Shown here piece by piece: positions 48,713-48,859 of a DNA stretch of 64,000 bases (its first letter is position 1; every line of letters begins with the position of its first letter). Source of the DNA: Nitrospira sp. (GTDB lineage Bacteria; Nitrospirota; Nitrospiria; Nitrospirales; Nitrospiraceae). The notes beneath the pieces were generated by a model, which ran no database searches, was not told the origin of the DNA, and saw only the letters and a list, made by a program, of their open reading frames with translations. Location of the stretch: the NCBI GenBank assembly GCA_024998625.1, contig JACOEL010000001.1, positions 1 through 64,000 on the forward strand, given 5' to 3'. The translations under genes were made by a program, and so were the position numbers.

Positions 48713-48746
48713 AAAAAAACCTTCCCACCGGTTTGGATGAGAAGGT
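48713..48746 (-). terminator. pyr operon attenuator (intrinsic terminator)
   Basis: On the minus strand ACCTTCTCATC pairs with GGTGGGAAGGT (hairpin 48746-48719, 11 pairs including two G-U), followed directly by seven T (48719-48713) and then the pyrR ATG. The 5' arm can instead pair with GGTGGGTAAGG (48802-48792), an antiterminator that overlaps the PyrR-binding hairpin. Confidence 0.85.
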
Positions 48747-48796
48747 GCGGGCTGTCGGACGGCTGGCTGCCGTGTCGTGTGGTCATGATTTCCTTA

Positions 48797-48814
48797 CCCA
48801 CCTCACAGGATGAG
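48797..48814 (-). promoter_or_regulatory. PyrR-binding loop in the pyr leader
   Basis: The minus-strand transcript contains UCCUGUGAGG (48810-48801), an exact match to the PyrR consensus UCCNGNGAGG, flanked by CUCA and UGGG, which form its stem. It lies about 10-27 bases from the predicted start of transcription. Confidence 0.85.
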
Positions 48815-48830
48815 CGTTAAAGGCGAGCCG

Positions 48831-48859
48831 ATCTTAACGAGTTGCCCCTACCGTGTCAA
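48831..48859 (-). promoter_or_regulatory. pyr operon promoter
   Basis: On the minus strand TTGACA (48859-48854) is perfect and TAAGAT (48836-48831) follows after 17 bases. Transcription would start near 48824 and give a leader of about 112 bases before pyrR. Confidence 0.8.

What the first reader, a model, noticed from the sequence alone, without database searches (positions are those of the whole stretch)
48713..48859. Bacillus-type PyrR attenuation in a Gram-negative nitrite oxidiser
In 150 bases the minus strand shows a near-consensus promoter, an exact PyrR-binding loop (UCCUGUGAGG in a CUCA/UGGG stem), a possible antiterminator overlapping it, and an 11-bp hairpin with seven T directly before pyrR. 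The parts are mutually exclusive in pairing, as in the known mechanism. The pyrR Shine-Dalgarno lies in the terminator stem, so translation may also be controlled.
Basis: partly seen in the sequence, partly recalled or inferred. Interest (0 to 1): 0.72.

Follow-up and report, generated by a model that had tools for sequence, protein, structure and literature searches.

The report
PyrR switch gating a hidden leader peptide
The nitrite oxidiser Nitrospira has a real pyrimidine-sensing PyrR RNA switch before its pyrimidine genes, but comparison of about 90 genera suggests that it works by letting or stopping a ribosome on a short hidden gene that runs through the terminator, and not mainly by the RNA-only switch known from Bacillus.

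Summary
On the minus strand, a TTGACA-17-TAAGAT promoter, a complete PyrR-binding hairpin (Rfam RF00515, 38.4 bits, the only hit in the genome), and an 11-bp terminator with U7 precede pyrR-pyrB-pyrC-DUF4149-carA. RF00515 matches occur in 27/29 genomes of the genus and 318/396 Nitrospirota genomes, mostly below Rfam's cut-off. A PyrR element in a Gram-negative is therefore not itself surprising here.

Its Shine-Dalgarno is the 3' arm of the PyrR hairpin. It runs through the terminator and stops in an ATGA overlap with pyrR's likely start (48688, not the ATG after the T-run). The layout recurs phylum-wide: in 89 of 91 genera the frame is open to the terminator's 5' arm (59.6 expected; 32 and 60 in the other frames). 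Firmicutes leaders show no such excess. They show antiterminator co-evolution instead, which Nitrospirota do not.

Best reading: PyrR blocks translation of a leader peptide; without PyrR a ribosome masks the terminator and re-initiates at pyrR. As I recall, this was proposed once, for Thermus ZO5. The RNA-only Bacillus mechanism is not excluded as a helper. Nothing was tested experimentally.

The parts
48831..48859 (-). sigma-70 type promoter, TTGACA (48859-48854), 17-bp spacer, TAAGAT (48836-48831); predicted +1 about 48824
   Evidence: sequence; same boxes and 17-bp spacing in 27/27 genomes of the genus
48792..48823 (-). PyrR-binding hairpin: lower stem CCUU/AAGG, UAACG bulge, upper stem CUCA/UGGG, loop UCCUGUGAGG
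   Evidence: RF00515 match, E 6e-4; only match in genome; 27/29 in genus, 318/396 in phylum; compensatory upper-stem changes
48790..48795 (-). Shine-Dalgarno of the leader ORF (AAGGAA; AAGGAG in most relatives), overlapping the 3' arm of the lower stem
   Evidence: phylum-wide SD next to the hairpin, median SD duplex -8.1 kcal/mol; 51/91 genera use the stem arm itself as SD
48685..48786 (-). leader ORF (33 codons, [33 protein letters not shown]), crossing the terminator and ending in ATGA with pyrR
   Evidence: 27/27 in genus, 26/27 with ATGA overlap; 89/91 genera open to the terminator against 59.6 expected
48713..48746 (-). intrinsic terminator: arms ACCUUCUCAUC 48746-48736 / GGUGGGAAGGU 48729-48719, U7 48719-48713
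   Evidence: RF00515 alignment; conserved in all 27 relatives
48792..48802 (-). possible antiterminator strand GGUGGGUAAGG, which could pair with 48745-48736
   Evidence: drawn (-7.4 kcal/mol alone); no co-evolution across the phylum
48128..48688 (-). pyrR, likely start ATG 48688 (automatic ORF start 48712)
   Evidence: NCBIfam PyrR NF003549 242 bits; best PDB matches are PyrR; start argued
44136..48113 (-). rest of the operon: pyrB 47193-48113, pyrC 45846-47138, DUF4149 protein 45330-45833, carA 44136-45320

Best explanation
It is a PyrR-controlled, translation-coupled transcription attenuator. Transcription starts just before the PyrR-binding hairpin. When UMP is high, PyrR-UMP holds the hairpin. 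This hides or crowds the ribosome-binding site of a 33-codon leader ORF, the leader is left untranslated, the terminator folds, and RNA polymerase stops before pyrR. When UMP is low, PyrR is off, a ribosome initiates on the leader ORF right behind RNA polymerase and covers the 5' arm of the terminator, so transcription continues. The ribosome then ends at the ATGA overlap and re-initiates at pyrR (48688). The leader peptide's sequence does not matter; the act of translating does. Shown by sequence: the parts, their conservation, the open frame and its stop positions. Inferred: PyrR and UMP binding, ribosome masking, re-initiation. An RNA antiterminator may help.
For: RF00515 element plus terminator throughout genus and phylum. 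SD and start codon right after the hairpin in 149/155 Nitrospirota leaders, median 10 nt from the stem, inside an initiating ribosome's footprint. Frame open to the terminator's 5' arm in 89/91 genera against 59.6 in spacer shuffles, z 6.9; 32 and 60 for the other two frames. Every stop lies no more than 12 nt before the 5' arm, often abutting it, or later. ATGA overlap with pyrR in all ten genera of the own family where pyrR was found among g1-g15, also when the stop lies 67-145 nt past the T-run. In the genus, a -1 and a +1 indel occur only together (6 both, 21 neither, 0 single), which keeps the frame while changing the peptide. The peptide itself shows no synonymous excess (45/59/45 changes by codon position). 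A second Gram-negative phylum repeats it: 19/19 against 11.5 expected. Firmicutes do not: 17/27 against 16.6 expected, and they do show antiterminator co-evolution, p 5e-5, absent in Nitrospirota (p 0.43).
Against: No expression, binding or ribosome-profiling data. Reading frames in GC-rich leaders are often open by chance (frame +2 is open in 24/27 of the genus). Genera share ancestry, so z-scores overstate independence. The antiterminator test has little power where arms are nearly uniform, and predicted antiterminator pairing in the own genus ranges from 0.04 to 0.97. The window's SD (AAGGAA) is weaker than the AAGGAG of relatives. Five of 96 genera lack a recognisable SD and start.
Confidence: 0.7

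Rival explanations
1. Bacillus-type attenuation by RNA only: without PyrR, GGUGGGUAAGG (48802-48792) pairs with the terminator 5' arm (48745-48736) as antiterminator; PyrR-UMP stabilises the hairpin and frees the terminator. The leader ORF is incidental.
For: The pairing exists in the window (10 bp with one bulge) and most Nitrospira leaders can form it, predicted pairing 0.04-0.97. RF00515 is defined on such leaders.
Against: Predicted weaker than the PyrR hairpin in the window. No co-evolution of the two strands in Nitrospirota, clear in Firmicutes. Does not explain the conserved ORF, its ATGA stop, or the paired indels.
Confidence: 0.15
2. Translational repression as in mycobacteria: PyrR hides the leader or pyrR ribosome site and lowers translation of pyrR through coupling; the terminator is secondary.
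For: SD lies in or next to the hairpin; ATGA coupling.
Against: A strong terminator hairpin with a T-run follows in the leaders analysed (median -18.2 kcal/mol), and coupling alone would not control pyrB, pyrC or carA.
Confidence: 0.1
3. UTP-sensing as in E. coli pyrBI: the leader ORF through the terminator couples to RNA polymerase pausing set by UTP, with PyrR a minor player.
For: Same layout of a leader ORF running through a U-rich terminator; the pyrBI comparison is from memory.
Against: A conserved PyrR loop abuts the ORF start throughout the phylum, and PyrR is the first gene.
Confidence: 0.04

Closest known systems
Thermus strain ZO5 pyr leader (Van de Casteele et al. 1997, J Bacteriol 179:3470; from memory, not held in the library)
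   Same: Gram-negative pyrR-pyrB-pyrC cluster; a proposal that a translating ribosome, not an antiterminator, prevents the terminator and that PyrR controls this
   Different: Other phylum, one strain, no comparative support known to me; here phylum-wide with stop-start overlap. Thermus DNA could not be compared here
Bacillus subtilis PyrR attenuators (Rfam RF00515)
   Same: Binding loop with UCCNGNGAGG, lower stem and purine-rich bulge, terminator, pyrR as first gene
   Different: Bacillus uses an RNA antiterminator and several sites per operon; here one site, a leader ORF, no antiterminator co-evolution
Mycobacterium smegmatis PyrR translational repression (from memory)
   Same: PyrR loop next to a ribosome-binding site
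   Different: No intrinsic terminator or leader ORF there, as I recall
E. coli pyrBI attenuator (from memory)
   Same: Leader peptide translated through the terminator
   Different: Senses UTP by polymerase pausing; no PyrR

Membership tests
Rfam RF00515 PyrR element | covariance-model match over gathering score (54 bits) | tested here: not met
   38.4 bits, but E 0.0018 genome-wide as the only match; 26 of 27 genus members also fall below
Rfam RF00515 PyrR element | lower stem, purine-rich bulge, upper stem and UCCNGNGAGG loop | tested here: met
   full-length alignment 1-115
Bacillus-type PyrR attenuator | pyrR encoded in the operon | tested here: met
   NF003549 242 bits
Bacillus-type PyrR attenuator | intrinsic terminator after the loop | tested here: met
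   48746-48713
Bacillus-type PyrR attenuator | antiterminator exclusive with both loop and terminator | tested here: inconclusive
   pairing possible, not favoured in the window, no co-evolution in the phylum
Bacillus-type PyrR attenuator | UMP-dependent PyrR binding promotes termination | not testable with these tools
   needs biochemistry
Thermus ZO5-type coupled attenuator | leader ORF with ribosome site at the PyrR loop, running through the terminator | tested here: met
   sequence and comparative evidence; translation itself not shown
Thermus ZO5-type coupled attenuator | sequence relationship to the Thermus leader | not tested
   Thermus DNA was out of reach of the tools; Thermus composti control rings with RF00515

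The most novel reading that the evidence does not exclude
Outside Firmicutes, PyrR attenuators are generally leader-peptide switches: the same PyrR loop sits on two different platforms, an RNA antiterminator in Firmicutes and a ribosome in Nitrospirota and at least one more Gram-negative phylum.
Probability: 0.5. Interest if true: 0.75.

Novelty: new variant of a known kind. Interest (0 to 1): 0.6.

Why it matters
PyrR attenuation is a textbook RNA-only switch. If this reading holds, one regulatory RNA-protein pair drives two different expression platforms in different phyla, and a single-strain proposal from 1997 becomes a testable phylum-wide rule. It adds a conserved class of leader peptides outside the groups where they are usually reported (PMC2965389 knew of them only in Proteobacteria and Actinobacteria, plus its own Firmicutes case). 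It would also correct pyrR start sites and show that RF00515's cut-off hides most Nitrospirota members.

Tried and rejected
Rfam at gathering threshold: no hit in the window. Whole-leader folding against shuffles: not significant, z -1.1, so energy alone proves nothing. Codon-position test for a conserved peptide: negative; the peptide is not the product. pyrR start at the ATG after T7: rejected. Frame openness within the genus alone: judged weak because another frame is open in 24/27, hence the one-per-genus test. Antiterminator co-evolution in Nitrospirota: none found. Search for Thermus or other pyr loci in plasmids: no Thermus among the listed records. Papers on Thermus ZO5, and the MMBR review and Bonner 2001 by DOI: not held; keyword searches gave nothing closer. 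eiav_FSE match: chance.

Full report
What is there. On the minus strand the window reads, in order: promoter TTGACA (48859-48854), 17 bp, TAAGAT (48836-48831); a hairpin with lower stem CCUU/AAGG, bulge UAACG, upper stem CUCA/UGGG and loop UCCUGUGAGG (48823-48792); a spacer; an 11-bp hairpin with U7 (48746-48713); then pyrR. The gene is a clear PyrR (NCBIfam NF003549, 242 bits; best PDB matches are PyrR proteins), followed by pyrB, pyrC, a DUF4149 membrane protein and carA. Rfam finds nothing at its curated threshold, but with E-values the PyrR family RF00515 aligns full length, 38.4 bits, E 6e-4, and is the only match in the whole genome.

Is it real. 27 of 29 genomes of the genus carry it, 26 of them below Rfam's cut-off; the promoter boxes and 17-bp spacing are kept in 27/27. 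Named relatives include Ca. Nitrospira defluvii (FP929003.1) and, at 78% PyrR identity, N. moscoviensis. Across the phylum 318 of 396 genomes and 146 of 169 genera have a match, and 137 of 147 in the order. The four upper-stem pairs nearest the loop are kept in 77-89% of genera through different pair types. A PyrR element in a Gram-negative nitrite oxidiser is therefore the rule in this phylum.

The missed part. In all 27 leaders of the genus the 3' arm of the lower stem continues as AAGGAG or AAGGAA and, a few nucleotides further on, an ATG or GTG opens a frame of 29-33 codons. It runs through the terminator and U7 and, in 26 of 27, ends in an ATGA that is also the start of pyrR. In the window: 48786-48685, [33 protein letters not shown]. 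The ATG after U7 (48712) is a poor pyrR start: in N. moscoviensis it meets a stop after four codons, in L022 it is out of frame, and in L134 and L150 it is ATA.

Is the leader ORF selected. Codon-position counts within the genus (45/59/45) show no protein-like constraint, and another frame is also mostly open, so openness in the genus alone is weak evidence. Three further tests are stronger. First, one leader per genus over 91 Nitrospirota genera: the start was chosen only by Shine-Dalgarno and start codon, and the frame is open to the terminator's 5' arm in 89, against 59.6 expected from shuffled spacers (z 6.9) and 32 and 60 in the two other frames. It passes the T-run in 63 against 27.9 expected. 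Stops that fall short either lie close to the base of the 5' arm or in the terminator loop, where a ribosome would still cover the arm. Second, within the genus two indels that would each break the frame occur only together (6 both, 21 neither, 0 single): the peptide changes, the frame does not. Third, the ATGA overlap recurs in all ten genera of the own family for which pyrR was located among g1-g15, and in N. moscoviensis, although the stop lies anywhere from 16 to 145 nt past the T-run. The GenBank loci L045 and L047-L049 lack it.

Controls. The same pipeline on 57 Firmicutes PyrR leaders finds a start in 27, of which 17 are open to the terminator against 16.6 expected. Those leaders do show that the PyrR hairpin and their own terminator arm pair better than with arms of other leaders (p 5e-5; p 0.0055 on the first 28), the mark of the Bacillus antiterminator. 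Nitrospirota show none (p 0.43), with the caution that their arms vary less. In the window, up to the 5' arm, the PyrR hairpin is predicted at -17.3, the antiterminator at -15.7 and the free fold at -19.6 kcal/mol. A second Gram-negative phylum, reached through a record titled 'Proteobacteria bacterium isolate C1.bin.36', gives 19/19 open frames against 11.5 expected.

Mechanism. PyrR bound at the hairpin covers or crowds the leader's ribosome site (median 10 nt from stem to start codon), so the terminator folds. Without PyrR the ribosome follows RNA polymerase, masks the terminator and re-initiates at pyrR. Binding, masking and re-initiation are inferred. From memory, this is what Van de Casteele et al. 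(1997) proposed for Thermus ZO5, in contrast to Bacillus; that paper is not held. The large Rfam-based survey of RNA regulons (PMC3766115) lists PyrR sites but does not mention Nitrospira.

Verdict. Observation confirmed. 'Bacillus-type' is only partly right: right sensor and gene, probably a different expression platform.

Noticed in passing
window 45330-45833 (-): A DUF4149 (PF13664, 37.9 bits) membrane protein sits between pyrC and carA in the pyrimidine operon, and an SppA-like peptidase follows carA; their role there is unknown.
   Followed up: partly
Rfam RF00515 in Nitrospirota: Only 56 of 396 genomes pass the gathering score although 318 have a match at E<=0.1, so automatic annotation misses most members.
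   Followed up: yes
L022 between the T-run and pyrR: One-base deletion relative to relatives breaks the frame of the ATG after the T-run and shortens the leader ORF to 29 codons; could be an assembly error.
   Followed up: no
G428 C19 and C97; G042, G093, G138 and others: Some Nitrospirota genomes carry two RF00515 matches; whether the second precedes another pyr gene was not checked.
   Followed up: no
Nitrospirota family f4 (g24): All genomes searched lack an RF00515 match, a possible loss of the switch.
   Followed up: no
L113, L116, L130/L136, L175, L208: Leaders of five genera with no recognisable Shine-Dalgarno and start next to the hairpin; possible exceptions to the leader-ORF rule.
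   Followed up: no
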